Virus record (IMG/VR): IMGVR_UViG_3300025000_002059
Span: 23,960-87,959 of that record
Length of the DNA: 64,000 bases
Strand: one strand, 5' to 3'
Source: a virus
Shown: piece by piece, positions 10,546 through 64,000 of the stretch
Layout: each line of letters begins with the position of its first letter
How positions within the stretch are numbered: position 1 is the first letter of the stretch
Position numbers and translations under genes: made by a program
The notes under the pieces: generated by a model
The model's database searches: none
Seen by the model: only the letters and a program-made list of their open reading frames with translations
What the model was told of the DNA's origin: nothing

Positions 10546-10551
10546 CAAAAA

Positions 10552-10573
10552 AAGAAGGCTTTTTCAGCCTTCA
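10552..10573 (-). terminator. Rho-independent terminator
   Basis: GAAGGCT pairs with AGCCTTC; on the minus strand the stem is followed by a run of seven T. It ends the transcript of the membrane protein at 10606. Confidence 0.85.
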
Positions 10574-10605
10574 GATGGAATACCCTATTTTGATTTATTT
10601 ATTTT

Positions 10606-17246: not shown

Positions 17247-17542
17247 TGCTAGTTAATGGAACTCCGGCTATTGCAGATATTAAGAGTCAGTGTTCAATTA
17301 TTCCCGGATTTGAATTTAACTACATCGCTTACAAGGGGAAAGTATTGTGGAGCACGGTATCGGCATCGCTTGATGATTATTTCATTTATCTTTATGACGG
17401 ACCAAATTATAAAAATGGGTGGGATCCATATACGGTAGCCTGCGTAGATGAACACGGTGATCTGTTTTACTACGGTCGCTGGACGAAATTAAAAAATGCA
17501 CTTGCATGGCTTGCGGATCCAAACATGCCAGAAAGGGACTAA
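17243..17542 (+). CDS. Hypothetical protein
   Basis: 99 residues: SIIPGFEFNYIAYKGKVLWS, DDYFIYLYDGPNYKNGWDPY, CVDEHGDLFYYGRWTKLKNALAWL. The start overlaps the XRE gene stop (ATGATG). No family recognised. Conserved-looking aromatic residues suggest a real small folded protein. Confidence 0.6.
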   Translation: MMLVNGTPAIADIKSQCSIIPGFEFNYIAYKGKVLWSTVSASLDDYFIYLYDGPNYKNGWDPYTVACVDEHGDLFYYGRWTKLKNALAWLADPNMPERD

Positions 17543-17547
17543 AGCAA

Positions 17548-18309
17548 TTGGAGACACTAGCGGTAATAAACCAAAAGGGCGGCGTAGCCAAAACTACAAC
17601 GAGCGTGAATATGGCGGCCATAATAGCCGCCATGGGATTCAAGACATTACTTATTGATGTGGATCCGCAAGCTAATCTTTCCCAATCCTTGGGCATTGTT
17701 GCCTTTGATATGGGAACACCTAATCTTTTCGAGGATCCGAAAATAACACTTAGCAAGTGCGTTAATGAAACAAGCATAACGAAATTATCCATTATTCCAT
17801 CGGACCTATCACTAGCACAAGTTGAATGGGAACTTTTGAAAACATTTAAAGGCACCAATACTTCTATTCTGCGAGACAAGATCAAGGCAAGTGAGGAAGA
17901 ATTTGATTATTGCATTATCGACTGCCCGCCAAGCTTAGGAATTTTCAGCCTTAATGCGCTCATTGCAGCGGACCGTGTGCTTATCCCGGTTGGTCTTGAT
18001 CCGTTCGGATTGATTGGAATAAAGTATCTAGTGAGCACGATCACTGATATCAGAATGAGTATAAACAAGCATCTCAAAATTCTGGGCATTGCACGGACCA
18101 TGTGGGATATGCGGCAGAGACTTGGACGAGAAATCAGCGAAAGTATGGAAAAGGATTATCCGGGAAAAGTCCTTGAGACGATTATAAAAATGAATGTAAG
18201 CGTCAAGGAAAGTGCTGTTGCCCAAATGCCACTGGTCATTTATGAGCCAAATGCTCCGGCTGCGCTGCAATACATTCAATTAACGAATGAAGTGTTACAG
18301 AGATGGTGA
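17548..18309 (+). CDS. parA: ParA-type partition ATPase
   Basis: 253 residues from a TTG preceded by AAAGGG; an upstream ATG at 17506 lies inside the previous gene. LAVINQKGGVAKTTTSVNMA is the deviant Walker A with signature lysine, LLIDVDPQANLS is Walker A', and YCIIDCPPSLGIFSLNAL is Walker B. These ATPases position DNA by forming ATP-dependent gradients on the nucleoid, driven by a centromere-binding partner. The RHH gene overlapping its 3' end is the likely partner. This indicates an extrachromosomal state at some stage. Confidence 0.92.
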   Translation: METLAVINQKGGVAKTTTSVNMAAIIAAMGFKTLLIDVDPQANLSQSLGIVAFDMGTPNLFEDPKITLSKCVNETSITKLSIIPSDLSLAQVEWELLKTFKGTNTSILRDKIKASEEEFDYCIIDCPPSLGIFSLNALIAADRVLIPVGLDPFGLIGIKYLVSTITDIRMSINKHLKILGIARTMWDMRQRLGREISESMEKDYPGKVLETIIKMNVSVKESAVAQMPLVIYEPNAPAALQYIQLTNEVLQRW

Positions 18310-18590: not shown

Positions 18591-19349
18591 ATGATTGAAG
18601 AAATAGATGACCAAATATTTACCATGACAAGTGATCTCTCGGATGAAGAACTGGTCGATTTTGCAGCTGGGATATTTAAGAGCAATTGGAAAACATCATA
18701 CGATTACCAGAAAACGGATCCTATTATATTTCAAAGCTTGCCGATCGATGGGAAAATACTTAAGCATACCGATTTTTTGTCTTCGGCTGTTTATATATCA
18801 GAACTAACACAAAAGGCATTATCCTATAGATGGAATGAGATAGGAGGTCTAGCCGGGAAAGAACTGAAGGAGTGGGATGCCAATGGCGGCCTTTGTATTT
18901 ATCTATCCATTTTGCATTTTTGTTTACTGCTGGAAAGCAAAGCCGTAAAAGAGAATGAACTATGCTTAGTCCAAGGATTTTATAGGCATCCAACACACGG
19001 AATACTCAGTATATTCTCAAATCTGGGAACTCAATGCGGAGTTCATGCCTTTATAAGCGTTCAGGGAGCGGTTGTTGATTTTTCGATACAGCAAGAAGCA
19101 TCAACGTTCGAATTTGGAGAAAAAGAATTCATTATTGGCGATATCCCAGATGAGATGGAGATGGTCGGCTGGACAGAAGGAAAGCATTTAGTCAAGCAAT
19201 ATGCGCGTGAGATAGCCCGGAGCAGCGGACTTAATTATTTTGAATGGATTGAACAGCACAAAATCAATTCATATAAACTTGCAAGCAAAGAACTTAACAA
19301 AGAGCTTGTAAGGCTTAAAAGATTATATAAAAGTTTGGAGGATGAATGA
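18591..19349 (+). CDS. Hypothetical protein with possible Cys-His-Asp arrangement
   Basis: 252 residues. The central part has GGLCIYLSILHFCLLL (Cys at the start of a helix), QGFYRHPTHG, then CGVHAFISVQGAVVDFSIQQ, an order (Cys, His, Asp) seen in papain/transglutaminase-like folds. The match is only a pattern, so enzymatic activity is not claimed. The C-terminus is helical (KINSYKLASKELNKELVRLK). It is co-transcribed with partition genes. Confidence 0.55.
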   Translation: MIEEIDDQIFTMTSDLSDEELVDFAAGIFKSNWKTSYDYQKTDPIIFQSLPIDGKILKHTDFLSSAVYISELTQKALSYRWNEIGGLAGKELKEWDANGGLCIYLSILHFCLLLESKAVKENELCLVQGFYRHPTHGILSIFSNLGTQCGVHAFISVQGAVVDFSIQQEASTFEFGEKEFIIGDIPDEMEMVGWTEGKHLVKQYAREIARSSGLNYFEWIEQHKINSYKLASKELNKELVRLKRLYKSLEDE

Positions 19350-19352
19350 GCG

Positions 19353-20408
19353 ATGGCTAGGAAAAAGAATGAAGAAGAAGTCACCCTAACCAATCAGGAA
19401 ATGATTCAAAAAGAAGAGCGCCATAGAAAAGATTTAGAAAATAAACTAAAGGCATCGGAAGCATCAGCGGAAGATCAGAAACAATTTACTCCCTTGGTCA
19501 AACTTACTAAGGATTTAAGAAGCGCAAGCCGGACATTGAATCCACAAGAAGCCCGGTATCTAGTGGACAGGTACTACCAAATCCAACAATACCGGACCAG
19601 CGCCAAGAATCAGATTAGAGCATCGGAAAGCGAAGAACCAAATGAAGTTATTGTCTGGTTTGCAGAGAACTTTGAGGAACTGGAGAAGAACATAAAAAAG
19701 GCGCTGGATGCTTATACGAGTAGTCATCCGGTCGGAGCTTGGGCCAAATCGGTGATCGGCGTAGGTCCGACATTCGCAGCCGGGCTTCTAGCGCACATTG
19801 ATGCGAAGAAAGCACCAACAGCCGGAGCCGTGTGGAGTTACGCAGGATATAATCCAAGTGTTGAATGGTTAAAAGGTCAGAAGCGTCCATGGAATGCTGA
19901 TTTAAAAAAACTATGTTATCTCATAGGTGAATCATTTGTAAAGGTTTCCAATAATCCTAAAGATATCTATGGTAAATTATATCGCCAAAGAAAAGATCAG
20001 GAGATAGCGAAGAATATAGCGGGAGAATTTGCGGAACAAGCAATATCAAAGCTGGAGAAATTCAAGATAGGTAAAGATACTGATGCTTACATATGGTATG
20101 CAGGATGTCTGACTGAAGATAAAGCCAGAGCAATTCTTCTGGGTGAAAAATCCGGATCAGCCAAAAGTCTAGCGGGAGAAAAGGATTCTGGGATTCGTAT
20201 GCTTCCACCAGCACATATCAACGAGCGGTCCAAGCGATATGCTGTTAAAATATTCCTAGCCCATTTTCATGAGGTCTTATTTGAATATGAATTTGGGACC
20301 AAGCCACCAAATCCATATGCTATCTCAATCCTGGGACATGCACATAAGCTGGAAGTTCCAAACTATGAAGTATTTAAAAAAGCGATGGAAGAAGATCCGT
20401 CACTATAG
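19353..20408 (+). CDS. Protein with IS110-type Transposase_20 (HhH) domain, no DEDD nuclease
   Basis: 351 residues. Residues ~130-195 match the C-terminal Transposase_20 domain of IS110/IS116 transposases: VIGVGPTFAAGLLAHID, GAVWSYAGYNPSVEWLKG and DLKKLCYLIGESFVKV. The N-terminus is charged helix (KEERHRKDLENKLKASEASA) instead of the RuvC-like DEDD domain, and the serine expected in a catalytic Tnp domain is not evident. The C-terminus has KRYAVKIFLAHFHEVLFEYE and PYAISILGHAHKLEVPNY, a pattern seen in phage homologues. It is probably a DNA- or RNA-binding protein. Array 1 begins about 30 bp after its stop. Confidence 0.75.
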   Translation: MARKKNEEEVTLTNQEMIQKEERHRKDLENKLKASEASAEDQKQFTPLVKLTKDLRSASRTLNPQEARYLVDRYYQIQQYRTSAKNQIRASESEEPNEVIVWFAENFEELEKNIKKALDAYTSSHPVGAWAKSVIGVGPTFAAGLLAHIDAKKAPTAGAVWSYAGYNPSVEWLKGQKRPWNADLKKLCYLIGESFVKVSNNPKDIYGKLYRQRKDQEIAKNIAGEFAEQAISKLEKFKIGKDTDAYIWYAGCLTEDKARAILLGEKSGSAKSLAGEKDSGIRMLPPAHINERSKRYAVKIFLAHFHEVLFEYEFGTKPPNPYAISILGHAHKLEVPNYEVFKKAMEEDPSL

Positions 20409-20439: not shown

Positions 20440-21148
20440 GAGCGAACCATCAGACAAGAGAGTATCAACAATAGAAGAGTGAGCCAACAAGCGTGAGCTA
20501 ATTGCATCCCATAAAAGCGAGCCACTAACCATGAATTATGCAACGAAAGAAAGCGAGCCATAGCAACAGATTACCCCATCTCGACGAGAGCGAGCCAATG
20601 GTCTATGAAAGCAGAATTGACCATCAAACAAGAGTGAACCGTGTGCAAAGATTGTATCAATTAGGAGAAGTGAGTCATTAGATTAGAATAGCACCATATC
20701 CGCAAAGCGAGCCGTTAGATCAGAAATTTATTTTATTCATTCCCATTGAGTGAGCCAAGAGCCAAGGTATACGAAAGCACCAACAACAACGAGCGAGTCA
20801 TCCGATATGAAATTAGATACAAATGCGTTGAGCGATCCAAAATGAATTGTAGCGAAACAAAGCGAACCATGGGTATGGAGAAATACCATTTATCTCCGAG
20901 TGAACCAAAAAATTAGAATAAATCGCCAAAGTAGAGTGAGCCATATGAAATAGATTAAATCACACTCTAAGAGCGAGCCAAGCTAACTTAATATAAAATG
21001 AACGAACCAGAATGCTTGATTGGGACAAAAATAACGAGTGAGCCACTAAAGGGAATTATAATATTTAATCAAAAAATGCAATGAGCGAAACAAAATATTT
21101 TGATCGAACCATTATAAAGGAGATATTCCGGGGATAACGAGTGAGTCA
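20440..21148 (+). repeat. Array 1a: 36-bp repeats with 10-bp RARYGARYCA motif
   Basis: Motif ends fall at 20449, 20486, 20524, 20560, 20597, 20641, 20677 and 20714, so spacing is 36-38 with one 44. Halfway (18 bp) lies a weaker motif, such as GAGAGTATCA ending 20467, GATTGTATCA ending 20659 and ATAGCACCA ending 20695. The intervening 8-bp segments are not conserved. All units point right. Stops occur in all frames over the stretch. About 20 units by length. Confidence 0.9.
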
Positions 21149-21151
21149 TGC

Positions 21152-21444
21152 AGGAAAGCGTGATGGGATGTTGGCTTAGAAGCAGCCATGGCTGGAAGGC
21201 TGATTGCTTTATGCAATCCATCTAAGGAGTGGGGCGATGGCTATTTGTGACTTGATTGTTTTTCCACATTATTAGCAATCTGAACCCGATGAGGGAAAAT
21301 GAATGTGGTAGTGTTACGATGATACCGATGCATTTGTAGTGACAAGGTAACATAAAAGCTGCAAATGAAGGAAAGCGTATAGCTTGGGAGTTGCTTTAGA
21401 GTTACACTTGGTTATCCCTTTTGGCGTAATAGCACACCATCACA
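21152..21444 (+). ncRNA. Structured RNA module resembling the 23S rRNA GTPase-associated centre
   Basis: From 21166, 24 bases are identical to bacterial 23S rRNA helix 43; they start GGATGTTGGCTTAGAAGCAG and end CCAT. TGGCT (21172-21176) pairs with AGCCA (21184-21188) around the TAGAAGC loop that holds A1067 in E. coli. GCGTAATAGC at 21424-21433 equals the helix 44 loop (A1095). GTGATGG (21160-21166) pairs with CCATCAC (21437-21443) to close the element. The ~230-nt insert has CCACATT/AATGTGG, GATTGC/GCAATC and CATTTGTAG/CTGCAAATG stems, and TGTTAC/GTAACA crosses the last as a pseudoknot. A second, imperfect helix 44 copy (GAAAGCGTATAGCT) is at 21371-21384. No protein is encoded. Confidence 0.7.
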
Positions 21445-22304
21445 TGAGTCATGCGGAATGATTGAACGAAATAGTGAGTGAACCATCAATAATGACCGGA
21501 ACATTGTGTCAGAGTGAGCCACGATATAAGAATAGCAACATTAATAGTTGGAGCGAACCAATCAAGCCGAAAATTAACATTCCCTATGAGTGAGTCAGGT
21601 ATATTTATGAAAAATATGAACGAGTCGAAGGAAGTAAGGGTACCAATCTCATAGAGCGAGCCATAAGGAATAATGGCAACATCACAGGAAAGCGAACCAC
21701 TAATAGCGAGTTACATCATTATACGAGAGTGAACCGTCAGAAGCGAAACTAAGTATCATATATTCAGAGTGAATCGGGATATTGGAGAGCACCACACATA
21801 CTGAGTGAATCAGGACTATGGAAAGCAGCAGATAAGCCGAGTGAGCCGAATAATGGGATAGCACCACGCTGGTTAAGCGAGCCATTGAAGGAAATAGGAT
21901 CAGAAATGCAGAGCGAGCCGCAGGATGTAAAAGCACAATAAAAAGAGAGCGAGCCAGACCAACCGAAAGCAGTATTGAGCGAGAGCGAGCCAGAGGAAAA
22001 AGATTAATTCATTGCAGGACAACGAGCCATAACTACAGATTAACGACAAGATTATAAGAGCGAACCAAAATCACGCTTAAATAAAATTGAAACATTAGCG
22101 AGTGAGTCATAGGACTTGATTGAATCACCCCATCGGAGCGATCCATATTAAGCGAGAATAACCAGCGTAGGTTGAGTGAGCCAAATGGAAGCGAGAGTAC
22201 CAATTGCATAGAGTGAGCCAGAACTGGTGATTAAAATCATTAATGCGAGAGCGAACCATGGCAAGAGAGGACCACAAATATAGAGTGATTCAAAAGCGAG
22301 GAAT
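21445..22304 (+). repeat. Array 1b: continuation of 36-bp repeats
   Basis: Same motif and orientation as array 1a, about 24 units by length (for example GAGTGAGCCA near 21515 and AAGCGAACCA near 21690). Half-unit motifs such as GATAGCACCA and GAGAGCACCA remain visible at 18 bp. It runs into the ribosome site of the embedded gene at 22310. Confidence 0.9.
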
Positions 22305-22309
22305 TATCG

Positions 22310-22594
22310 ATGAGAGATTTAATCAGTTATGATGAGATGCTAGAAAACAAGGATAAGCTAAAAACCATATTCCTCGATTTCAAGGCACGGTATTATGCTT
22401 TGGGCAAGAAGCAGAATGGAAAATTTAAAACGAGTGATCTTGACCGATTAATCCGGGAGACGATCGCAGAATTAAAAGGCAAAGAAAAACTTATTGCCGA
22501 AGGATTTCTGGAATTCGTGCTGGGATTTTTATTCAACAGCTCGTGGGATTCTACGAAGGCTTTTAATTCTGTAGATAAAATGTTTAACTGGTAG
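22310..22594 (+). CDS. Hypothetical protein embedded in array 1
   Basis: 94 residues: SYDEMLENKDKLKTIFLDFK, KTSDLDRLIRETIAELKGKE and GFLEFVLGFLFNSSW. Composition and a GCGAGGA ribosome site support a real gene; that site is also a remnant of the array motif. The array stops before it and resumes about 35 bp after it. No family recognised. Confidence 0.6.
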   Translation: MRDLISYDEMLENKDKLKTIFLDFKARYYALGKKQNGKFKTSDLDRLIRETIAELKGKEKLIAEGFLEFVLGFLFNSSWDSTKAFNSVDKMFNW

Positions 22595-22629
22595 ATAAAT
22601 TTAGCCAAAACAGATGATAGTATCACGGC

Positions 22630-23030
22630 ATCCAAGCGAACCATTGACTATCGCCGGAAAGCGAGCCAATTCACACGACTAAAAACAAGATACTGAAGCG
22701 AACCAGAGGAAAAGACTATTTCATTACAGGAAAGTGAGCCGGACCAATTGATAAATACATTAAATGAGAGTGAGCCACGGTTAGGGACAATTTCAATTAT
22801 TAGAAGCGAGTCAAACAGATAAGATTTCCATTTAAAGAGAGCGATCCATTTCAGATGACAGTAACAGCCTTTACGAGTGAGCCAGAAAATAGGATAGCAT
22901 CATTATGCGAAAGCGAGCCAAGTGCATGAAGATATAAACCATTAAACGAGATCGAACCAGTAGACAAGGAAAGTATCATGATCATAAAGTGAGCCAAACA
23001 CCATGATTAGTAACATTATGGACAAGCGGA
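22630..23030 (+). repeat. Array 1c: 36-bp repeats
   Basis: About 11 units. Well-formed examples: GAGTGAGCCA then GATAGCATCA 18 bp later then AAGCGAGCCA 18 bp later (around 22875-22920). Same orientation. Confidence 0.88.
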
Positions 23031-23057
23031 CTAATACACCCTTGGGAGGTGGAACGA

Positions 23058-23495
23058 TTGGACCACGAAATATCATACCCAGAAAAGAAATGTCCCGGAT
23101 GCGGAAATGATAATCTACTGGATGGACCGCGAGGTGGACTATCTCAAAATGTCTTATGCCCGGAATGCCAAAGAGAATGGAACTATGGACCATTTGGGTA
23201 TGAAGAAATCAGCCCGGCACGAACATACTTATACCGAGTTGTGTCTCCAAAACTTGATCTGCGGATCATCCCAGTAGGATGCAAGCCGGGATGCTGTGGG
23301 GAAACATATCCATGCATTGATGAGGTAGCCATGATTATAGAACAGGGCAATCTTGCCTTTATGATTCACGGCGAGCACGTTAAGGAGCAGTTAGAGAAAC
23401 TAGAATACAGAATTGATGTAACGAGTCATAACAACATACCGATTGGAATGTATATATCTGAAAAGGGATCAAAAAGCGTGTACGAAAGATTTTAG
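23058..23495 (+). CDS. Zinc-ribbon protein embedded in array 1
   Basis: 145 residues from a TTG five bases after GGGAGGTGG. An N-terminal zinc ribbon has CPGCGNDNLL near residue 12 and CPECQREWNYG near 34. A second Cys cluster, GCKPGCCGETYPC, is near residue 77. The C-terminal half is alpha/beta (VAMIIEQGNLAFMIHGEHV). Likely nucleic-acid or protein binding. Its placement inside the array suggests a functional link but does not prove one. Confidence 0.65.
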   Translation: MDHEISYPEKKCPGCGNDNLLDGPRGGLSQNVLCPECQREWNYGPFGYEEISPARTYLYRVVSPKLDLRIIPVGCKPGCCGETYPCIDEVAMIIEQGNLAFMIHGEHVKEQLEKLEYRIDVTSHNNIPIGMYISEKGSKSVYERF

Positions 23496-23514
23496 CCAGC
23501 ACATGAGAAAATCC

Positions 23515-23745
23515 AGAGATCGTGAGCGAATCAATTGATGAAAAAAGCAACATTACTCCGGAGTGAACCGATTGAAATGATGATCCATTGACCAAGAGTG
23601 AGCCAATATCTATGAGCCACCCAATTTAAAGTAGCGAGCCATCCCAAAGGATTTTTCAATTCCACGGAAGCGAGCCATTATAAGGCGATATTTCAGTCCA
23701 CGGGAGCGATCCAATTCACCAGTCTAATATTTCTTGGAGTGAAAA
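23515..23745 (+). repeat. Array 1d: 36-bp repeats
   Basis: About six units (GAGTGAACCG, GAGTGAGCCA, AAGCGAGCCA, GAGCGATCCA). Half motifs include ATATTTCAGT-type variants. It ends at the ribosome site of the next gene. Confidence 0.85.
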
Positions 23746-23752
23746 TATTTTT

Positions 23753-24127
23753 ATGGATAGACTGCGAAATGAGCGAAAGGCCAACGGTTTATGTGCTCAA
23801 TGTGGAACTAAACTTGATAGGATTGGGAGATATTGCAAAAAATGCAATACTTCAGGGAATATTAATAAGCACAAACGTTGCCTAAAGCTTTATGCAATCG
23901 GTTTATGTACTACTTGCGCTGAGCCATTAGACAGAGATGGTTGGTTTTGCTCAAGGTGTGCAAACAACTTAAAACTTAGGGCAAGAGTTAGAGACACAGA
24001 AAGAAGATTAAAAGGATTATGCGTTCAGTGTGGCGCTTGGGCAGATGGGTATTCCTATTGCCAACGCTGCAGGGATATGAGGATGGAGAGATATCACTCA
24101 AAGAAAAGGTCCATTCACCAAGAGTGA
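23753..24127 (+). CDS. Triple zinc-ribbon protein embedded in array 1
   Basis: 124 residues made of three tandem Cys4 units: GLCAQCGTKLDRIGRYCKKC, GLCTTCAEPLDRDGWFCSRC and GLCVQCGAWADGYSYCQRC, joined by basic linkers (NKHKRCLKL; RARVRDTERRLK). The whole protein is strongly basic, suggesting nucleic-acid binding. GGAGTGA, an array-motif derivative, serves as ribosome site. Its repeated binding units would suit a repeated target, such as the array around it (inference). Confidence 0.7.
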   Translation: MDRLRNERKANGLCAQCGTKLDRIGRYCKKCNTSGNINKHKRCLKLYAIGLCTTCAEPLDRDGWFCSRCANNLKLRARVRDTERRLKGLCVQCGAWADGYSYCQRCRDMRMERYHSKKRSIHQE

Positions 24128-24355
24128 GTGAGCCAATATTGGATTTTTACATTAGAGAAAGAGCGAATCAAACAGATATTATTTTTCAGATACCAAGAGT
24201 GAGCCAATTATGATGACAGAAACAACCCAAGAAAGCGAGTCAATGAATACGAACTTTATCAACAGATATGAAGCGAGCCATAACAATGAAGTATAACCAT
24301 CATCCAAGAGCGAGCCTAAGCAATTGATCACCCCACACTCACTGAGCGATTGAAG
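24120..24355 (+). repeat. Array 1e: last part of array 1
   Basis: About six units (GAGTGAGCCA, GAGCGAATCA, GAGTGAGCCA, AAGCGAGTCA, AAGCGAGCCA, GAGCGAGCCT), overlapping the 3' end of the triple zinc-ribbon gene. The repeats fade before the ribosome site of the next gene. Confidence 0.85.
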
Positions 24356-34810: not shown

Positions 34811-36970
34811 AAGCGAGCCAAGAATAGAGATTTTACAGAATTTTGAGCGAGTCAACTAGGTAGATTTTTTCAAATGTCCAAAGCGAACCAAAGCGCTTGA
34901 GAGCGCCAAAATTGGCAAGTGAACCATCAGTAGCAATAGTGCCAAACTATCAGAGTGAGCCAAAGTATTTGAGTTAAAATCATAAAAAGGTAAGTGAGTC
35001 ATCGAACCAGATTATAAACATTGAAGAATAGCGAACCATTTTTGATTAAGAGAGTGAGTCAAAGTTTCCGATCGTACCTAAGTAAGGGAGCGAGTCCAAA
35101 GGTTTTTCAGTGTACCAGAAAGAGGGAGCGAGTCATACCAAACAGAAAAAAGAACGAACCACGAACATAGACTTATTCATTTTACGAGAGTGAGCTAATA
35201 ATGCCGATAGCAACAAAAACAGTGAACGAGCCAAGAATACTGAGAGTACCATATTTCGAGAGCGAGCCAGTAAGATGGGTATTTCCAAAAAAGAGAAGCG
35301 AGCCAAGAACTCTGATATCCCAGACCAAGCAAGCGAGTCAAGGTTTCCGACCATACCCAAACGTAAGGGATCGAGTCAAGGTTTCCGAGTGCACCGAAAT
35401 TAGGGATCGAGACATGATAGCTGATTTAATCGTAAATAATGATCGTTTCAATCCACGCACCAGAAATGAGGTGCGACAATAAATATAAGTGAGCCAGCTG
35501 CATTGAGATTACCAATGTAGAGAAGCGAACCAACGAATGTGATTAGTTTACAATTGAAGAGTGAACCACACGATAAGATGTCACCGTATGTTTGGAGTGA
35601 GCCAAAGAATTAAAAAAACATTATATGCAAGCGAACCAAAAACCTTAGACAATATCAAACCCCAAGAGTGAGTCAAGCTTTCCGAGAGGTCCAGAACGGA
35701 TGAACGAATCATGTTTCGTGAGAGCACCAGAAACATGGAGTGAGCCAAGAACACTGAGATACCAATTGCGAGAGAGCGAGCCAATAACTACGATCGATCA
35801 CTGAAAAGAAGCGAACCAGTGTTGCTGGATTTGAGCAAAGTCTCTGAGTGAGTCATGGAGACAGGATAAGATCCAAATATGTCATGACTTTCTATTAGTC
35901 GTGTGGGATTGAAACATAGCTGCTAAACGAGCCAAAATATAGAATAGCAACATTAATAGTGGAGCGAACCATGGCGAATGATAATGACAATTTCCATTGA
36001 GTGAACCATTAGGAATGAGAGAACCAGTTAAATGAGTGAACCATGTATCGTGAAAAATTTCAAGCGTTACGAGTGAGCCAACAGAGTTAATCATTACAAT
36101 TGTTCAGAGCGAATCATTAAACTTGATTGTATCAGAGGTTAGAAGTGAATCAATGGGACGGAGAGTACCACAAACCATTAGTGAGCCATTCAATCGGAGA
36201 GCACCGTAAAGAACGAATCATAAGCGGCGAAAGAATCAGAACCTCGAAGTGAACCATGTATTGTGATATTTCATAATCTGTGAAGTGAGCCATCATTAGG
36301 GATTGTTTCAATTATTAGGAGTGAACCACTTTTTGTGAGAAACACAGCGATATAAGGGTGAGCCAAGAACACCGACAGTCAACAAAGCCACAAAGCGAAC
36401 CAATGTTGGAGAGAGCACCGTGCCATTCGAGTGAACCGATGTCGCACCATTTTTAAACAGAGCGAGCCAATGACGATGGAGAGCACCATGATCACGGAGC
36501 GAACCACCATTAGGGATAGTAACATATTTTTGGAGTGAGCCGAGGATACTGACATTTAAACCAGATGGAAAGAGTGAGCCAAAGTATCCGAATACAACAA
36601 CCTTCTAGAGCGAGTCACCCCACAAGAGCACACCCATGTCCGTTAAGCGATCCATCAAGGCATAGAGCACCATCAAGCATGAGTGAATCGACATTCGTGA
36701 GATACCCAATACTTGTGAGTGAGCCAGCATATCTGAATATTTCAATAGTCGTGAGTGAGCCACTGCCGCAAGATAATACCATGTCCATAGAGCGATCCAC
36801 TACGCAAGATAGCACCACAACTGTAGAGTGAACCATCGGGGAGAATTAATCATCGGTTAGAAGTGAGTCATTAAACTTGATAGCACCATATCCGCAAATC
36901 GAGCCAATCATGCTGAATATTTCAATGAGCCAGAGTGATCCAATTATTTAGATCGAATCAATAAATCTGA
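34811..36970 (+). repeat. Array 2: 36-bp repeats with RARYGARYCA motif
   Basis: About 60 units in one orientation. Measured motif ends 35197, 35233, 35269, 35305, 35340, 35378 and 35414 give spacings 36, 36, 36, 35, 38 and 36. A half-unit motif lies 18 bp from each (GAGAGTACCA ends 35251, midway between 35233 and 35269). The second half of each unit often reads TGAGAGNACCA or ATATTTCA. All frames contain stops; short open stretches with SEP or ARS every 12 residues are by-products of the period. Confidence 0.92.
35415..35486 (+). other. Non-repeat insert with GC hairpin inside array 2
   Basis: Here the array is interrupted: the next motif end comes 82 bp after the previous one. The insert contains CGCACC pairing with GGTGCG around an 8-nt loop (about 35456-35475). 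It may be a processing site, a small insertion or a decayed unit. Confidence 0.4.
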
Positions 36971-46941: not shown

Positions 46942-47898
46942 ATGATCGCAGATAAGACGATTTTAATCACAGGTGGTACAGGAACTTTTGGTCAAAAATA
47001 TACAGAATGGCTAATAAAACATAAGGGAGTAAAACGAATTATTATATTTTCTAGAGATGAATTAAAGCAACATGATATGAAACAAAAATTTAAAGATGAG
47101 CGAATACGTTATTTTATAGGTGATGTAAGAAATCAAAATCGATTAGAAAGGGCATTCAATGAAGTAGATATTGTAATTCATGCTGCAGCACTAAAGCAAG
47201 TCCCAGCTTGCGAGTATAATCCTTGGGAAGCAGTCCAAACAAATGTAATCGGAACACAGAATATAATCGAGGCATCTATTAATAAAAAAGTTAGTAGATG
47301 TCTTTTGCTCAGTACAGATAAAAGCTGCATGGCTTCAAACACATATGGAAAAACAAAAGCTCTAGCCGAATCTTTATTTATAAACGGCAATGCATATGCG
47401 AGCGGGACCAAGACCAGATTCAGTTGTGTTCGTTATGGAAACGTTACCGGATCGCGGGGAAGCATAATCCCTTTGATGGAAAAGCTTCGGGACAGCGGAC
47501 AGCCGATCACTATCACCGATGATCGGATGACAAGATTCTGGCTGGAACCTGAAAGGGCATGTGAAATAGTTTCGTCAGCAATTCAGATGATGTATGGCGG
47601 GGAAATATTTATACCCAAAATACCCAGTGTTCGAATTTTAGATTTGAAGCAGGCTATAGCGCCAGAGTCAGAGATTAAATTTATTGGGATCCGGGAAGGC
47701 GAAAAACTGCATGAGTCCTTAATAAGCGAGCAGGAAGCACCGATGACGATCGATGCCGGGGAGTTCTATGTTATAGAAAGCCCGCAAGATTGGTTCCAGA
47801 GAGGACGCATAAAAGGAATTCATTTTGAAAAGGAAAGATATGTAAGTAATGAAAATGAAAACTTTCTTAGCATTGAAGAAATTCAGGCTGGGATTTAG
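46942..47898 (+). CDS. pseB: UDP-GlcNAc 4,6-dehydratase (PseB/LegB-like)
   Basis: 318 residues from an ATG after AAAAGGAG (a TTG one codon before is possible). TILITGGTGTFGQKYTEWLI is the NAD(P)-binding Rossmann start, FSRDELKQHDM is typical of the PseB group, and HAAALKQVPACEYNPWEAV then LLLSTDKSCMASNTYGKTKA hold the D-K and Y-X-X-X-K catalytic residues. The enzyme makes the 4-keto-6-deoxy UDP sugar that starts nonulosonic acid (pseudaminic/legionaminic) synthesis. The usual NP(I/M)N before YG is replaced by CMASN. First gene of the sugar cargo. Confidence 0.88.
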   Translation: MIADKTILITGGTGTFGQKYTEWLIKHKGVKRIIIFSRDELKQHDMKQKFKDERIRYFIGDVRNQNRLERAFNEVDIVIHAAALKQVPACEYNPWEAVQTNVIGTQNIIEASINKKVSRCLLLSTDKSCMASNTYGKTKALAESLFINGNAYASGTKTRFSCVRYGNVTGSRGSIIPLMEKLRDSGQPITITDDRMTRFWLEPERACEIVSSAIQMMYGGEIFIPKIPSVRILDLKQAIAPESEIKFIGIREGEKLHESLISEQEAPMTIDAGEFYVIESPQDWFQRGRIKGIHFEKERYVSNENENFLSIEEIQAGI

Positions 47899-47927
47899 TC
47901 AACCGAGCTGAGAGCACCATGAGAAGC

Positions 47928-48226
47928 GAACGAACCATGGAACAAGAAAAAAGCGTTATGTAGAAGTGAGCCAAATTTAAAGAGTGTACCAATGAACATG
48001 AACGAACCAAAAGGTCGGACTGAAACAATTCAAAAGAGTGAGCTATCTTGAATGGATTGAGACATTGAATGGGAGCGAACCAAAATCATTAAAAAATCAT
48101 GTTTAGTGAGTGAGCCAAACGAATGGAGAGCACCGCATTATAAGAGCGAACCATATAGATGGAGAATCCCAAATAGCAAGAAGTGAGCCAATACTCCTGA
48201 GAGTACCACATTCCGAGAGCGAGCCA
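47928..48226 (+). repeat. Array 3: 36-bp repeats
   Basis: Nine units. Motif ends 47937, 47973, 48009, 48045, 48082, 48117, 48153, 48190 and 48226, spacings 36, 36, 36, 37, 35, 36, 37 and 36. A half motif, GAGTACCA, ends at 48208, exactly midway between the last two. Same orientation as arrays 1 and 2. It fills the gap between the dehydratase and the next ParB-methyltransferase. Confidence 0.93.
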
Positions 48227-48258
48227 TGACGATGAGATAAACATTAGAAGGTGAGCGT

Positions 48259-49464
48259 TTGATTTTGAATCAAATTATAATTGATGAAGAATTTAAAGGT
48301 TTGTGCCCGGCGCTTTCAGCAGAAGAGCGGAAGCAACTGGAGAAAAACATCATCGAGGAAGGATGCCGGGATGCCTTAGTAATCTGGAAAAACATAATCA
48401 TTGATGGGCATAATCGATATGAAATTTGTATTCGAAATTCTATTGAATATAAGACGGTCGAAATGGATTTTCCAGATAGGGAATCAGTAATTGATTGGAT
48501 AATTAATAATCAATTAGGGAGAAGGAATTTAACGAAGGAAGCCCAGAGCTATTTAAGAGGTTTGCAATATTCGAGGGAAAAGAAGAAACCGGGAGCACCC
48601 GAAGGAAACAAAAATGCAGAAAAACAAATAGATAATAATTTATCAATTGTTTCTGGTAATTCCACTGCTCAAAGACTAGCGGAACAACACAATGTCACCC
48701 ATCAAACGATAAAAAATGATGAAAAATATGCCAAAGCAATCGATACCATAACCGAGGAATTAGGCGAAGATGTAAAGGAAAAAATACTTAGCCATGAAAT
48801 TAATGTTACCAAGAAAGACATAGCACAACTAGCAAAGTGGGAATCGGAACAACGACAAAAAGTTATTGCCATGATCGTAAAACAAGAAGCAAAAGGTGTC
48901 AGGGATGCGATTATTAGACTAAATAAAGAAAAAGCCAAGGCATTAAATGAGACGCCAATCGCCACACCTAAAGGAAAATATAAAGTCATAGAAATTGATC
49001 CACCATGGAAAATGAATGGAGAAGAAGCAAAATCACAAGTTATGCAATATCCACTAATGGACATGGAAGAACTTAAAAAATTAAAAAGTGTTATTGATGA
49101 GATGGCAGACGAAAACTGTCATCTTTATTTATGGGCAATAAATCCCATGCTACCCGAAGCTTTTGAACTTATGGAAGTATGGGGTTTTAAATATAAAACA
49201 TGTATTACATGGATTAAATCTAATGGATTTGGGACTGGTCATTATTTTAGAGGACAGACCGAGCATGTTTTATTTGGTATAAGAGGAAAATTAAATACTT
49301 TGGAAAATGATCAAGCAAACTATTTAGAAGCACCAAGAACAAAACATTCAGAAAAACCGGAAAAATTTTATGAAATAGTTGAACGAATGTCTCCTGAACC
49401 AAGGATTCGTTTATTTGCAAGAGCACAGAGAGATGGCTGGGTGTCATGGGGGAATGAGATATGA
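48259..49464 (+). CDS. ParB-like domain fused to MT-A70 adenine methyltransferase
   Basis: 401 residues. Residues ~15-95: ParB-like (ALSAEERKQLEKNIIEEGCR, IIDGHNRYEICIRNSIEYKT). A middle linker has an HTH-like stretch (STAQRLAEQHNVTHQTIKND). Residues ~235-395: MT-A70 family with VIEIDPPWKMNG (DPPW motif), HLYLWAINPMLPEAFELMEV and EHVLFGIRGK. It probably methylates N6 of adenine in phage or host DNA. This is the second ParB-methyltransferase fusion in the window, and array 3 ends 32 bp upstream of it. Confidence 0.9.
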   Translation: MILNQIIIDEEFKGLCPALSAEERKQLEKNIIEEGCRDALVIWKNIIIDGHNRYEICIRNSIEYKTVEMDFPDRESVIDWIINNQLGRRNLTKEAQSYLRGLQYSREKKKPGAPEGNKNAEKQIDNNLSIVSGNSTAQRLAEQHNVTHQTIKNDEKYAKAIDTITEELGEDVKEKILSHEINVTKKDIAQLAKWESEQRQKVIAMIVKQEAKGVRDAIIRLNKEKAKALNETPIATPKGKYKVIEIDPPWKMNGEEAKSQVMQYPLMDMEELKKLKSVIDEMADENCHLYLWAINPMLPEAFELMEVWGFKYKTCITWIKSNGFGTGHYFRGQTEHVLFGIRGKLNTLENDQANYLEAPRTKHSEKPEKFYEIVERMSPEPRIRLFARAQRDGWVSWGNEI

Positions 49465-57476: not shown

Positions 57477-57730
57477 AAAACTTTAGATTAGGTAGATTTG
57501 AAATTCCAAGAGATGTAATGCTTGATACAACAGAAATTGCTATCGCAATCACAAATGGAATGCTTATCATTCGTGCGGAAATGATGTTCAATACTGATTC
57601 TGTAGAGTATACGGCGATATCACCCATGTTTGATGAGATAGAGAATGGAACAATACCTCCAAGCTATGAGATCATCGTGGAAAAGAAGGATGATGAAATC
57701 AAAGTCAAAGCAATAAGGAAAAGTCCATGA
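57473..57730 (+). CDS. Small hypothetical protein inside the sugar cluster
   Basis: 85 residues from the ATG after AAGGAGAAAATT: FRLGRFEIPRDVMLDTTEIA, IAITNGMLIIRAEMMFNTDS and YEIIVEKKDDEIKVKAIRK. Small beta protein. The stop overlaps the next start (ATGA). Function unknown. Confidence 0.55.
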   Translation: MKNFRLGRFEIPRDVMLDTTEIAIAITNGMLIIRAEMMFNTDSVEYTAISPMFDEIENGTIPPSYEIIVEKKDDEIKVKAIRKSP

Positions 57731-58428
57731 AGACATTAGCGATTATCCCGGCTAGAAGTGGATCAAAGAGACTGGTTCAGAAAAATATGAGAGAAATTAA
57801 TGGGCAGAGTTTACTGGCCCATGCAATTGATACTGCTATCCAAAGCGATGTGTTCTCAGAAATCGTTGTATCGAGCGATTCGAAAGATATATTGGAGAGC
57901 GTCCAACACTTTAATAAAATCGTTTACCATCTTAGGCCACCGAGTCTGAGTGGAGACACGGCTAAACTGAAGACGCTTGTCAGATATCTCATGGAACTTT
58001 ATGCAGCTGAAGAAAACAAGTTCGATATTGTCGCATTGATTATACCGACTTCACCACTTCGGAGATCCGAAGATTTGAGAACGGCAGCGGCACTCATGCG
58101 AAAGAACTATGACAAAATCAATGGAGTCATGAGTGTAGTAAACATGGATCACCCACCGCAGCATACTTTCAGAATTGATTATCAGGGATACATTCAGGCG
58201 ATGTACCCAGAATTCATGGACACGCAATCCCAATTCTTAGAGCAGACATACATACACGATGGCACAATTATCTTCGTAAAGACAGAAAGCTTTCTGAAAT
58301 ATGAAGATTTTTATATGCCAAATGTGATGCCTTATTATATCAATCCGGAAAGATCCATTGACATAAACACTGAATTTGATTTAAAAATAGCTGAATTTTT
58401 AATGGGGGGAAGGAAAAGTGGGAGATAA
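57727..58428 (+). CDS. neuA: CMP-nonulosonic acid cytidylyltransferase (NeuA/PseF/LegF-like)
   Basis: 233 residues. LAIIPARSGSKRLVQKNMRE is the CTP-binding motif, IVVSSDSKDILESV and LRPPSLSGDTA follow, then ALIIPTSPLRRSEDLRTAAA. It activates the nine-carbon acid as CMP sugar for a glycosyltransferase. A single activating enzyme for two synthases implies loose specificity or a common product. Confidence 0.92.
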   Translation: MKTLAIIPARSGSKRLVQKNMREINGQSLLAHAIDTAIQSDVFSEIVVSSDSKDILESVQHFNKIVYHLRPPSLSGDTAKLKTLVRYLMELYAAEENKFDIVALIIPTSPLRRSEDLRTAAALMRKNYDKINGVMSVVNMDHPPQHTFRIDYQGYIQAMYPEFMDTQSQFLEQTYIHDGTIIFVKTESFLKYEDFYMPNVMPYYINPERSIDINTEFDLKIAEFLMGGRKSGR

Positions 58429-58648
58429 GTGGGATCGAAAGACCGGATTCTGCTGTGCAACATGTGCATTCTATGCGCCTAAGACTTTAGAGATCGGACG
58501 ATGCCGAAGAAACGCACCAACGATGAATGGCTATCCTGTTGTTTATGCAAACCACGATTGGTGTGGGGACCACAAACTAGACACCAATCCCAGTAGGGTA
58601 AGATTTGAAGAACAGCAGAAGGAAGTTCAGCCAGAATATAATATTTGA
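58418..58648 (+). CDS. Small zinc-binding phage protein
   Basis: 76 residues from a GTG after GGGGGAAGG. FCCATCAFYAPKTLEIGRCR, RNAPTMNGYPVV and DWCGDHK form a recurrent phage pattern (C-TC-F--------GRCRR-AP and DWCG-H). Likely zinc binding. It overlaps the cytidylyltransferase end and is a phage gene lying within the sugar cargo. Confidence 0.68.
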   Translation: MGDKWDRKTGFCCATCAFYAPKTLEIGRCRRNAPTMNGYPVVYANHDWCGDHKLDTNPSRVRFEEQQKEVQPEYNI

Positions 58649-58668
58649 GTCTGGAAAGAAGTGGATAT

Positions 58669-59373
58669 ATGAGCAATATTCTAATTGTAGCTGCGCATCC
58701 AGACGACGAAATATTAGGATGCGGCGGAATGATGGCTAGGGTTACGCGTTCTGATTCTCAAAGAGTATCAGTCGGATATTTGAGTTACGGACTGACATCG
58801 CGCCAAGAATCAGAAACACTAGCCGAATTCGAGAAGGAAAAAGTTAAGGACCGATCACGAAATGCCATGGAAGCATTGACCGGAATATCAAAACAGGAAA
58901 TGAGAAAGCATCTTAAATTTGCCAATTTTCCAGACAATAAATTTGATACAGTGCCACTTCTTGACATAGTAAAGCAAATTGAGAAGTGGATACAGGAAAT
59001 AAAACCAGATATTATATTCACGCATTCGCAGAAGGATCTAAATATTGACCATTGTCTAACGCACCGAGCGGTCCTCACGGCAACACGACCAATTAAGGGA
59101 AACCACAGTGTCAAGACGATTTATTCTTTTTCAATTCCATCGAGCACAGAGTGGACATTTGGGGCATTCGGAGTATTCGCTCCAAATATCTTTGTAGACA
59201 TTACCGGAATGACAGCAGCTAAAGCTAAAGCATTAAAATGCTACGATACAGAGATTAGACAATTTCCACATCCACGATCGGAAGAATATATGCATTTCCA
59301 AGCTTTTTATATGGGTTCGATCGTTGGAATGGATGAAGCAGAAGGATATGAAATGGTTAGAGGGTTTATTTAA
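58669..59373 (+). CDS. PIG-L/LmbE family deacetylase
   Basis: 234 residues from the ATG after AAGAAGTGG. ILIVAAHPDDEILGCGGMMA is the zinc-binding AHPDDE motif, ITFTHS-type IIFTHSQKDLNIDHCLTHRA supplies the other His residues. The family removes N-acetyl groups from sugars such as GlcNAc. In a nonulosonic acid cluster it may free an amine for another acyl group. Length is normal. Confidence 0.9.
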   Translation: MSNILIVAAHPDDEILGCGGMMARVTRSDSQRVSVGYLSYGLTSRQESETLAEFEKEKVKDRSRNAMEALTGISKQEMRKHLKFANFPDNKFDTVPLLDIVKQIEKWIQEIKPDIIFTHSQKDLNIDHCLTHRAVLTATRPIKGNHSVKTIYSFSIPSSTEWTFGAFGVFAPNIFVDITGMTAAKAKALKCYDTEIRQFPHPRSEEYMHFQAFYMGSIVGMDEAEGYEMVRGFI

Positions 59374-59464
59374 AAATTTAGTGGGGGCGGTTCTAAAGGA
59401 TCCACGAATAGCTTCCGCACTAGTTGGATTCTTGAGTGACGCTAGGGGGACTGCAGCGCAATAA
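59348..59464 (+). CDS. Possible small amphipathic peptide
   Basis: 38 residues overlapping the deacetylase end: MKWLEGLFKNLVGAVLKDPR, then IASALVGFLSDARGTAAQ. GAAGG directly precedes the ATG. Composition is helix-forming and amphipathic. Reality uncertain. Confidence 0.4.
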   Translation: MKWLEGLFKNLVGAVLKDPRIASALVGFLSDARGTAAQ

Positions 59465-59515
59465 GCCGGGCAGAGATGCGCACATTAAATCTTCTCAATT
59501 TGTGGAGATGAAATT

Positions 59516-60847
59516 TTGAGAAAATTAGTAGAGAAACTTAGATTGTTGAGTAGCAGGCAGAAAGAAGAGATTATAAAGAAATTATCAGACGAAGAAATCC
59601 TTGCTCTTTATTATGATTGGGAAGGAGTGTGGTCAAGACCTAGTCAAGTTGAGCCAGCTGGAGACTGGACATACTGGTTGATTCTTGCTGGTAGGGGATG
59701 GGGAAAGACCAAAACAGCAGCAGAATGGATTAGAAAAAGGGTTTGCACATTAGAGTCAAAACACATCGCACTCGTAGCACCAAGGGCATCGGACATTAGG
59801 GACATCATGATAGAGGGACCAAGCGGAATCCTTAATGTATTTCCACCAAATCAAAGACCAAACTATGAGCCATCAAAAAGAAAGATCACATTCCATACCG
59901 GGGCAGTAGCCATAACATACTCCGGAGATGAGCCGGACCAATTGCGGGGACCAAATGTGGATACAGCATGGGTCGATGAATTAGCCAGTATCCCAAAACA
60001 AGAGCAAGTCCTAGATATGATTGCTTTCTGTTTGAGGATTGGTGTTAACCCAAGGTGTGTGATAACCACTACGCCAAGACCAACGAGAACGATCAAACGA
60101 TTAATCCGGGAAGATAATACTTGCATAACGAGAGGGTCCACCTTTGAAAACAGAGATAACTTATCGACTGTTTTTTTTAGTTCAATCATTGAACGCTATA
60201 AAAATACTAGGATTGGAAAGCAAGAATTATATGGAGAAATTCTAGATGACAATCCAAAGGCTTTATGGAAAGAGAAAATAATCGAGGAATCACGAGTTAT
60301 AAAGCATCCGGAATTAAGAAGGATTGTAATCGGAGTCGATCCAGCCGCCACAGCTAATAAAAATTCTGATGAAACAGGAATTATCGCGGTTGGAAAAGGG
60401 AATGATGGTCATTTTTATATCTTGGATGATAAGTCATTGAAGGACAGTCCAGCCGGATGGGGGAAGGCTGTCGTTTCTGTTTATTATAAATACAAGGCAG
60501 ATAGAGTCATAGGTGAAGTCAATCAAGGCGGGGATATGGTCGAATATGTGCTCAAGACCATCGATAGATATGTGAGTTTCAAAGCAATCCATGCGTCAAG
60601 GGGAAAAAAGTTAAGAGCGGAGCCAATAGCAGCACTTTATGAGCAGCATAAATGCCATCATGTAGGTACATTTCCGGACCTCGAAACTCAAATGACAAAC
60701 TGGGATCCGGAGAATGATGTAGAGTCACCTGATCGAGTCGATGCTTTGTGTTGGGCTATCTGGGAACTAATGGACGGTCCCAAGAAACTAAGCAAATACA
60801 ATCCATCTGGAATCGAGGACTTTAAACGAGAGAGTCCTCATATTTAA
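59516..60847 (+). CDS. terL: Terminase large subunit
   Basis: 443 residues from a TTG after GGAGATG. ATPase: WLILAGRGWGKTKTAAEWIR (Walker A-like), PDQLRGPNVDTAWVDELASI (Walker B region) and the coupling motif TTTPRPTRTIKRLIRED. Nuclease: RIVIGVDPAATANKNSDETG (RNase-H-like Asp) and SPDRVDALCWAIWELM. It pumps DNA into the prohead and cuts concatemers. The gene is separated from terS by about 13 kb of sugar and other cargo genes. Confidence 0.95.
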   Translation: MRKLVEKLRLLSSRQKEEIIKKLSDEEILALYYDWEGVWSRPSQVEPAGDWTYWLILAGRGWGKTKTAAEWIRKRVCTLESKHIALVAPRASDIRDIMIEGPSGILNVFPPNQRPNYEPSKRKITFHTGAVAITYSGDEPDQLRGPNVDTAWVDELASIPKQEQVLDMIAFCLRIGVNPRCVITTTPRPTRTIKRLIREDNTCITRGSTFENRDNLSTVFFSSIIERYKNTRIGKQELYGEILDDNPKALWKEKIIEESRVIKHPELRRIVIGVDPAATANKNSDETGIIAVGKGNDGHFYILDDKSLKDSPAGWGKAVVSVYYKYKADRVIGEVNQGGDMVEYVLKTIDRYVSFKAIHASRGKKLRAEPIAALYEQHKCHHVGTFPDLETQMTNWDPENDVESPDRVDALCWAIWELMDGPKKLSKYNPSGIEDFKRESPHI

Positions 60848-60891
60848 ATTTTGGGCAAAATTGAAAATGATTTACAAAAGGAGTTGAGGTA

Positions 60892-61101
60892 ATGGATAAG
60901 CTATTAGAACACTGGCAAGCCATGGCGGTTATAGTACTTGAGGAAAGACAGATAGAAAAAGAGTGTTTGCGAACCAACATTAAGATTGATGTTGTCAAGC
61001 GGATAGCCGATTCAACGTCATGGTCCTTAAGGAAATCATTTGAATTTTGCCTTCGCGAGAAGGAGGGAAATCAAAGATGGCCCTGCCAAATGATCCTTTA
61101 A
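60892..61101 (+). CDS. Small hypothetical protein between terL and portal
   Basis: 69 residues: LEHWQAMAVIVLEERQIEKE, NIKIDVVKRIADSTSWSLRK. It overlaps the portal start by 25 bp. Ribosome site AGGAGTTGAGG. Function unknown. Confidence 0.55.
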   Translation: MDKLLEHWQAMAVIVLEERQIEKECLRTNIKIDVVKRIADSTSWSLRKSFEFCLREKEGNQRWPCQMIL

Positions 61102-62402: not shown

Positions 62403-62407
62403 CGGTC

Positions 62408-63325: not shown

Positions 63326-63365
63326 AATTAAAAAACCATATTTATTTTAGGGGGGTAAAATTTTT

Positions 63366-63994: not shown

Positions 63995-64000
63995 TGGGCA

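What the first reader, a model, noticed from the sequence alone, without database searches (positions are those of the whole stretch)
47928..48226. Third copy of the 36-bp array with near-exact spacing beside a ParB-methyltransferase gene
Nine units with spacings 36, 36, 36, 37, 35, 36, 37, 36. All three arrays share orientation although separated by tens of kilobases, so they are dispersed members of one system. This short, clean array is the best place to define the unit. It ends 32 bp before a ParB/MT-A70 fusion gene.
Basis: seen in the sequence. Interest (0 to 1): 0.75.

Follow-up and report, generated by a model that had tools for sequence, protein, structure and literature searches.

The report
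Phage array of paired RNA guides
The repeat array is a TIGR array, a string of tiny two-part RNA guides for a Tas protein encoded by the same bacterial virus; related viruses keep many of the same guides, which suggests that the guides aim at something that changes little.

Summary
Observation confirmed: nine edge repeats at 47928-48226 with spacings 36,36,36,37,35,36,37,36, all three arrays on one strand. The array is a dual-repeat TIGR array: 10-nt edge repeat, 8-nt spacer A, 10-nt loop repeat, 8-nt spacer B. Its partner is not the neighbouring methyltransferase but a solo-Nop Tas protein (TasA, 19353-20408), which matches TasR and TasH by sequence and fold. The window holds about 118 guides in three arrays. 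In 425 neighbouring unit pairs, edge position 7 covaries with position 4 of the NEXT edge (407 of 425 standard pairs; z 139), the inter-edge pair described for TIGR edge repeats. Four related phages keep all three arrays at the same places; two of them lack a detectable MT-A70 gene. A quarter to a third of guides are shared between phages whose synonymous sites are saturated (30-34% identical); in shared units the spacers are better kept than the repeats around them. This argues for a stable guide set rather than fast-turning immune memory. No targets were found in own or related phage genomes. The family is known (2025); long-term guide conservation is the new result.

The parts
47897..48257 (+). 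TIGR array 3 (the finding): ten 36-bp units, truncated edge at both ends; edge (R)A(R)YGARCCA, loop GAnARnACCA, spacers 8 nt
   Evidence: 8 of 8 parsed neighbouring unit pairs keep the inter-edge pair
20440..24353 (+). TIGR array 1, downstream of tasA: 54 parsed units in blocks interrupted by three small ORFs and one structured element
34811..36968 (+). TIGR array 2: 55 parsed units, between the YqaJ/RecT genes and the DnaD/DnaC-like genes
19353..20408 (+). tasA: 351-aa solo-Nop Tas protein, no nuclease domain found
   Evidence: Transposase_20 weak; PDB TasR 1.4e-12, TasH 7e-8; profile 1.3e-22; Foldseek top ten all TasH/TasR; VIA Z 18.0 / 16.6
18591..19349 (+). 252-aa gene directly before tasA, conserved in four relatives (49-55%), function unknown
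   Evidence: no Pfam, PHROGs or PADLOC match; no fold match at E<=0.001 for a pLDDT 65 model; alignment
17506..18309 (+). ParA-like ATPase, first gene of the same gene row
   Evidence: AAA_31 1.5e-50; phrog_164 ParA-like
21156..21446 (+). About 290-nt structured element inside array 1 with 24 nt identical to the 23S rRNA GTPase-associated centre; not part of the TIGR units
48259..49464 (+). MT-A70 methyltransferase ORF next to array 3: neighbour only, not shown to belong to the system
   Evidence: PF05063 7.4e-28; not detected beside array 3 in G002 and G004

Best explanation
The array is one of three TIGR (Tandem Interspaced Guide RNA) arrays of a phage TIGR-TasA system. Shown here: unit architecture edge 10 / spacer A 8 / loop 10 / spacer B 8; a Tas protein of the solo-Nop (TasA) kind encoded directly before array 1; one orientation; covariation between neighbouring edge repeats that closes each 36-nt RNA unit; conservation of the three array sites and of many spacer pairs in relatives. 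Inferred from the published family (PMC12045711): the arrays are transcribed on the + strand, cut within each edge repeat into 36-nt tigRNAs, and bound by a TasA dimer; spacers A and B pair with opposite strands of one short DNA site. Having no nuclease domain, TasA would bind and bend the site rather than cut it. Inferred from the conservation: the sites lie outside the phage, most likely in a slowly changing genome such as the host's, where the complexes would block or alter transcription or replication. Identity as TIGR-TasA: about 0.97. RNA-guided DNA binding here: about 0.85. Fixed guide set under purifying selection: about 0.6. Host-genome targets: about 0.35.
For: Tas identity. Array architecture. 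The CGphi29 phage array that sits beside its TasH gene, read here, has edge AAGCGAGCCA and 8-nt spacers, nearly the edge found here (GAGCGAGCCA). Covariation edge_i pos 7 with edge_i+1 pos 4: 407 of 425 standard pairs, z 139, next-best z 25 of 390 tests; no such link within one edge; 22 double changes against 15 single among 85 shared-unit pairs. Tas to array: 9 of 9 viral loci with a TasA relative have units close by; lag-36 signal beside tasA in 4 of 5 bacterial-genome loci, weak in the fifth. Array to Tas: 58 of 80 held loci with the array pattern have a Tas relative, 58 of 58 on the same strand and within 1.5 kb. Spacer conservation.
Against: No target was found: own and related phage genomes, 80 other array-bearing loci, E. 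coli rRNA, and the resident genome of one Acidobacteriaceae prophage for 3 of its 6 guides gave no more matches than permuted or control patterns. The repeats begin with GA, not with the UG (box D) of TasR arrays. Array 3 has no terminator of its own and runs into the next gene. No transcript data exist. The AlphaFold model rests on ten sequences (pLDDT 76.6).
Confidence: 0.9

Rival explanations
1. A DNA-level array of protein-binding sites, for example a centromere for the ParA/ParB-like proteins or sites for the ParB-methyltransferases.
For: ParA-like gene in the tasA gene row; ParB_N-methyltransferase at 43391 and MT-A70 gene beside array 3; one-strand, non-coding arrays.
Against: A site array does not predict that position 7 of one unit covaries with position 4 of the next, nor that the 8-nt stretches between the motifs are conserved between phages while the motifs drift. 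The arrays track tasA; no MT-A70 relative is detected in two of the four relatives.
Confidence: 0.03
2. TIGR guides are an adaptive-type memory against rival mobile elements, updated by an unknown route, and shared guides merely reflect recent exchange between phages.
For: Faure et al. propose inter-element competition as one possible role (PMC12045711, section 10); most guides (about 70%) are not shared between phages.
Against: Shared guides sit mostly in colinear order in corresponding arrays (101 of 105 shared pairs in the same array) and have drifted loop and edge repeats, which recent exchange would have carried along unchanged. No rival-phage targets were seen in 80 array-bearing loci.
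Confidence: 0.25
3. Guides regulate the phage's own genome.
For: Arrays are kept at the same three places of the genome by every phage of the group.
Against: 560 guides show no excess of A/B site pairs in own or related genomes in four layouts and gaps -1 to 2, nor any clear distance peak within 60 nt for own genomes (one peak at distance 0 in the same-strand layout, 25 hits, means that halves A and B of a unit resemble each other and was not followed up).
Confidence: 0.07
4. Non-functional, decaying repeat arrays.
For: Array 1 and array 2 hold degenerate units and irregular spacings.
Against: 95.8% kept inter-edge pairs with compensatory changes and conserved spacers show continuing selection.
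Confidence: 0.02

Closest known systems
TIGR-Tas, dual-repeat arrays with TasA (Faure et al. 2025, PMC12045711)
   Same: Alternating edge and loop repeats of 10 nt ending in CCA, 8-nt spacers, 36-nt unit, Nop-domain Tas protein without nuclease, array beside the tas gene, inter-edge pairing, phage genome.
   Different: About 118 units in three arrays, two of them 14 and 27 kb from tasA, against 'most often, 5 to 15' units; many guides conserved between diverged phages; the gene before tasA is not recognisably the ParB-like tasParB.
Salicola phage CGphi29 TIGR-TasH (SpTIGR)
   Same: Edge AAGCGAGCCA is nearly the edge here; 8+8-nt spacers (paper section 6).
   Different: Effector carries an HNH nuclease; one short array.
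IS110-family bridge-RNA transposases (IS621, ISCro4)
   Same: Nop-like RNA-binding fold (Z about 13; profile E 4e-4); explains the Transposase_20 label.
   Different: No DEDD transposase domain matched here; single bridge RNA rather than arrays (PMC12045711 section 10).
CRISPR arrays
   Same: Regular repeats and variable spacers giving many guides.
   Different: Two alternating short repeats, split 8-nt spacers; no Cas gene among the 20 ORFs scanned with Pfam.

Membership tests
TIGR-Tas (dual-repeat type) | Nop-domain Tas protein encoded in the locus | tested here: met
TIGR-Tas (dual-repeat type) | Alternating 8-12-nt edge and loop repeats with short spacers, about 36-nt unit | tested here: met
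TIGR-Tas (dual-repeat type) | Array next to the tas gene | tested here: met
   31 bp lie between tasA and the first edge of array 1; 58 of 58 Tas-bearing array loci within 1.5 kb
TIGR-Tas (dual-repeat type) | Box C (CCA) at the end of both repeats | tested here: met
   edge ends CCA, loop ends mostly CA, often CCA
TIGR-Tas (dual-repeat type) | Box D (UG in TasR arrays; may diverge if edge and loop agree) | tested here: inconclusive
   both repeats begin with GA, not UG; the CGphi29 array beside TasH begins AA
TIGR-Tas (dual-repeat type) | Covarying base pair between the two half edges of one tigRNA | tested here: met
   407 of 425 standard pairs, z 139
TIGR-Tas (dual-repeat type) | Truncated edges at array ends, then a terminator (typical, not strict) | tested here: inconclusive
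   array 3 has truncated edges at both ends; no terminator follows it in the sequence read; a terminator-like site lies about 350 nt after array 2
TIGR-Tas (dual-repeat type) | Processing to 36-nt RNAs bound by the Tas protein | not testable with these tools
   needs RNA sequencing
TIGR-Tas (dual-repeat type) | Spacer A and B pair with opposite strands of one DNA site | tested here: inconclusive
   no target found; binding not testable here
TasA subtype | Nop domain alone, no RuvC or HNH | tested here: met
   Pfam and PHROGs show no nuclease domain; residues 4-60 form one long helix in the model
tasParB-tasA operon | ParB-like gene in operon with tasA | tested here: inconclusive
   the 252-aa gene before tasA matches no family or fold; a ParA-like gene lies before it
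CRISPR-Cas | Single direct repeat and Cas proteins | tested here: not met
   two alternating repeats; no Cas family among the 20 ORFs scanned

The most novel reading that the evidence does not exclude
TIGR-TasA arrays in these phages are not immune memory but a vertically inherited set of about a hundred RNA guides under purifying selection, aimed at stable sites outside the phage, most plausibly the host chromosome: RNA-guided takeover of host DNA without cutting.
Probability: 0.4. Interest if true: 0.88.

Novelty: new member of a known kind. Interest (0 to 1): 0.62.

Why it matters
The targets and the purpose of TIGR arrays, TasA above all, are stated as unknown in the founding paper (PMC12045711, section 10). 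A group of five related phages with 79-118 parsed guides each, many of them conserved while synonymous sites are saturated, turns that into a testable question: whatever these guides pair with must itself be stable. It also gives a comparative-genomics proof of the tigRNA unit (inter-edge covariation) that needs no experiment.

Tried and rejected
Targets in own and related phages: real guide pairs no more frequent than permuted pairs in 16 layout/gap combinations and 24. In one search one layout (A|revcomp B, gap 0) was depleted (5 against 17.9; 0 of 1000 permutations as low); another layout (rcB|A, gap -1) was low too, and the depletion did not repeat in 883 guides of 80 other loci (17 against 16.3). 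It is dropped.

Single-spacer targeting in own genomes: about 5-20% more 8-mer hits than reversed controls on both strands, far from one site per guide; read as composition.

rRNA as target (box C/D analogy): no excess on E. coli 16S/23S/5S. An attempt to get rRNA from 13 Eubacterium-family genomes found none in them.

Coding-phase test of guide variants: no 3-base periodicity.

Exact 16-mer target scans of viral contigs for two conserved guides: 29 and 60 stretches. Many hits are copies of the same phages; by gap 0/1/2 the raw counts are 10/11/8 and 31/7/22, copies not merged, so the second is not clean evidence either way. None of the other guides matched those contigs beyond chance (where the exact hits are there by construction).

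Resident genome of the Acidobacteriaceae KBS 96 prophage: 3 of its 6 guides, up to one mismatch, 0 hits; 15 hits in 14 of 123 genome scans (41 genomes, three patterns), similar to reversed-pattern controls. Host of G000 itself: not identified (searches give mixed signals; a DnaD/DnaC-type loader hints at Bacillota, inference).

Mycobacteriophages with a Tas-like protein (74 of 78 records): no 36-nt periodicity upstream of the gene in phage Pinto, the only one looked at.

A Rfam search of the whole window (gathering cut-offs) found nothing; of 21100-21500 at E<=1 nothing.

Full report
WHAT WAS CHECKED. The array at 47928-48226 is real and as described: nine sites, spacings 36,36,36,37,35,36,37,36, one unbroken run; simulated sequence of the same first-order composition gave a mean of 0.065 sites and never a run above 1 in 2000 copies. 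In the window the motif RAGYGARYCA occurs 93 times on the + strand and never on the - strand. The array is a little longer than given: with the loop repeats and truncated edges at both ends it has ten units, about 47897-48257.

ANATOMY. Aligning 90 edge sites shows a second conserved block exactly 18 bases on. An iterated weight-matrix parse gives edge (G/A)AG(C/T)GA(A/G)(C/T)CA, 10 nt, spacer A of 8 nt, a loop repeat of 10 nt that begins GA and ends CA, and spacer B of 8 nt. The stricter parser finds 118 units in the 88-kb record, 54, 55 and 9 in arrays 1, 2 and 3, all on +; these are lower bounds, since degenerate units are left out. Shuffled array sequence gave 0-3 units in each of 20 shuffles against 132 (an earlier, laxer cut-off that also admits some out-of-phase units).

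THE PARTNER PROTEIN. The ORF at 19353-20408 ends 31 bp before the first edge of array 1. Pfam gives only a sub-threshold Transposase_20 match and PHROGs a family labelled transposase (5e-48). Against solved structures its sequence matches TasR (9mty, 1.4e-12) and TasH (7e-8), with a ten-member profile 1.3e-22 and 1.1e-12, then IS621 4e-4. A model from ten sequences (mean pLDDT 76.6) has as its only Foldseek matches at E<=0.001 ten chains of TasH and TasR; the second aligner gives Z 18.0 for TasH, 16.6 for TasR, about 13 for IS621/ISCro4 and 7.1 for Nop5 (the Nop5 value is within the range of unrelated helical rows). No nuclease domain was found. It is a TasA.

THE FAMILY. The paper that defined TIGR-Tas (PMC12045711; outline, sections 4-10, 24, 44, 49 and passages read) describes this: dual repeats of 8-12 nt, spacers of 8-9 nt in the systems tested, 36-nt tigRNAs cut within the edge repeat, CCA at the repeat ends of TasR arrays, an extra base pair between the two half edges of one tigRNA, solo-Nop TasA. 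The Salicola phage CGphi29 array, which I read downstream of its Tas gene, has edge AAGCGAGCCA and 8-nt spacers. The paper's tasParB, a ParB-like gene in operon with tasA (section 44), is not recognisable here: the gene before tasA (18591-19349) matches no family and no fold, though a ParA-like gene precedes it.

COVARIATION. In five related phages, 425 pairs of neighbouring units were compared at 390 position pairs. Edge_i position 7 with edge_i+1 position 4 stands alone (mutual information 0.665, z 139; the next best is loop 3 - loop 8, z 25; edge_i 8 - edge_i+1 3 has z 12.7): T-A 219, C-G 160, T-G 26, A-T 2, against T-T 14, C-A 3, A-G 1, that is 407 of 425 standard. Within one edge the same two positions are unlinked (C-A 86 times). 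In array 3 all 8 parsed pairs are standard. Among 85 shared-unit pairs with a parsed next edge, the pair is the same in 48, changed on both sides in 22 (21 of them A-T to or from G-C), on one side in 15; these pairs are not independent. This is the pattern expected if the functional unit is an RNA running from one edge into the next, and no DNA-site model predicts it.

RELATED LOCI. From tasA to array: 9 of 9 viral loci with a TasA relative carry units beside it; the first, strict criterion saw 8 of 9, the parser found the ninth, 6 units starting some 34 bp after tasA of G003. Five genome contigs (Eubacterium MAG, three Acidobacteriota, Propionivibrio) show a lag-36 peak, clear and beside tasA in four and weak in L057.

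SYNTENY. G001-G004 (82-88 kb, TasA 75-80% identical) each carry three arrays on one strand, 79-111 parsed units: array 1 after tasA (in G003 a short block there and the rest further on), array 2 between RecT and the DnaC-like gene, array 3 after the PseB-like epimerase. An MT-A70 relative is found near array 3 in G001 (45% over 216 aa) and G003 (25% over 224 aa) and not in G002 and G004. So the array belongs to the place and to tasA, not to the methyltransferase.

CONSERVED GUIDES. Among 560 units, 118 unit pairs differ at no more than 3 of 16 or so spacer positions, against 0, 0 and 1 in letter-shuffled sets. Between phages, 27 of 110, 32 of 108, 31 of 101, 25 of 76 and 31 of 97 units are shared (G000 to G004; units with spacers outside 7-9 nt, two wrap-around duplicates of G003 and the near-copy G010 were dropped). 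Of 105 between-phage pairs, 101 lie in corresponding arrays, mostly in the same order (Spearman 0.76-1.0 in seven of eight comparisons, -0.4 in one with four pairs). To avoid selecting on the outcome, units were paired by one identical spacer and the OTHER spacer was scored: chance-corrected identity 0.78 (95% 0.69-0.87; 57 pairs, 38 families) and 0.75 (0.65-0.85; 59 pairs, 34 families), against 0.45 and 0.51 for loop positions 3-8 and 0.35 and 0.23 for the variable edge positions; 0 of 1000 bootstraps reversed the order of spacer and loop. Four-fold degenerate sites in eight genes are 0.30-0.34 identical between G000 and the others, so neutral identity is nearly gone. Recent exchange would have kept repeats and spacers alike. 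In the 80 other loci most shared guides come from near-identical contigs, but one guide (GAAAGTCG/GCGTTCAA) is kept in L205, L236 and L247 with 2-3 loop differences. About 70% of guides are not shared, so turnover exists as well.

WHAT THE GUIDES AIM AT. Not found. The layout implied by the paper's 8-nt 3' overhangs is spacer A followed by the reverse complement of spacer B (my derivation). No excess over permuted pairs in own or related phage genomes, in 80 array-bearing loci or on E. coli rRNA; no hit in the resident genome for 3 of 6 guides of the KBS 96 prophage. Variation among related guides shows no codon phase. The host of G000 is unknown. Stability of the guides together with absence of phage targets points to a stable outside genome; the host chromosome is the simplest candidate, but this is inference, and the one resident genome tested speaks mildly against it.

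NOVELTY. The system is a new member of the TIGR-Tas kind. I found no statement on conservation of TIGR spacers between related phages in the parts of PMC12045711 that I read ('conserved spacer': 0 occurrences) nor in searches of the open-access library (of PMC12385481 only passages were seen; other papers only as listings). Subscription papers and preprints are not covered.

Noticed in passing
window 21156-21446 (array 1); L017 11326-11616; L039 6998-7296: A structured element of about 290 nt sits between TIGR units and holds GGATGTTGGCTTAGAAGCAGCCAT, identical over 24 nt to E. coli 23S rRNA (GTPase-associated centre, around nt 1062), and near its other end GCGTAATAGC, the next hairpin of that domain, with some 230 nt between. 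Present in G000, G002 (91%) and G003 (80%), not in G001/G004 by blastn; 10 of 78 predicted pairs have a kept double change among three sequences; no Rfam match; an exact-pattern scan of viral contigs found only G002 and G003. Possibly an RNA mimic of the L11-binding region (name of the domain recalled).
   Followed up: partly
window 57645-64000 and start of record G000 (L004 1-6356): The record has an identical 6,356-bp direct repeat at its two ends, so the genome is about 81.6 kb and probably complete, circular or circularly permuted.
   Followed up: yes
phage collection, e.g. Mycobacterium phage Pinto gp70 (L066 5848-6558): 74 mycobacteriophage records carry a Tas-like Nop protein (about 33% over some 113 aa) labelled transposase, DNA-binding or hypothetical; no 36-nt periodicity before the gene in the one phage looked at.
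   Followed up: partly
L056 (Acidobacteriaceae bacterium KBS 96, about 10001-11030): An isolate genome with tasA and a clean six-unit TIGR array (edge GAGCGAGCCA); a tractable natural host for target work.
   Followed up: partly
window 18591-19349: The gene before tasA keeps invariant Cys, His and Asp in the contexts GG-CIY-S, G-HAFI and V-DFSI, which recalls papain- or transglutaminase-like enzymes (recalled, not matched by any tool).
   Followed up: partly
window 22310-22594, 23049-23495, 23753-24127: Three small ORFs, two with zinc-ribbon signatures (one below the Pfam cut-off), interrupt array 1; a relative of 23049 is found in all four relatives near array 1.
   Followed up: partly
window 34005-34460: A separate patch of 8-bp-period AT-rich repeats (ATAAATCC / ATATCCAT) and a long hairpin just before array 2, reminiscent of an origin or regulatory region.
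   Followed up: no
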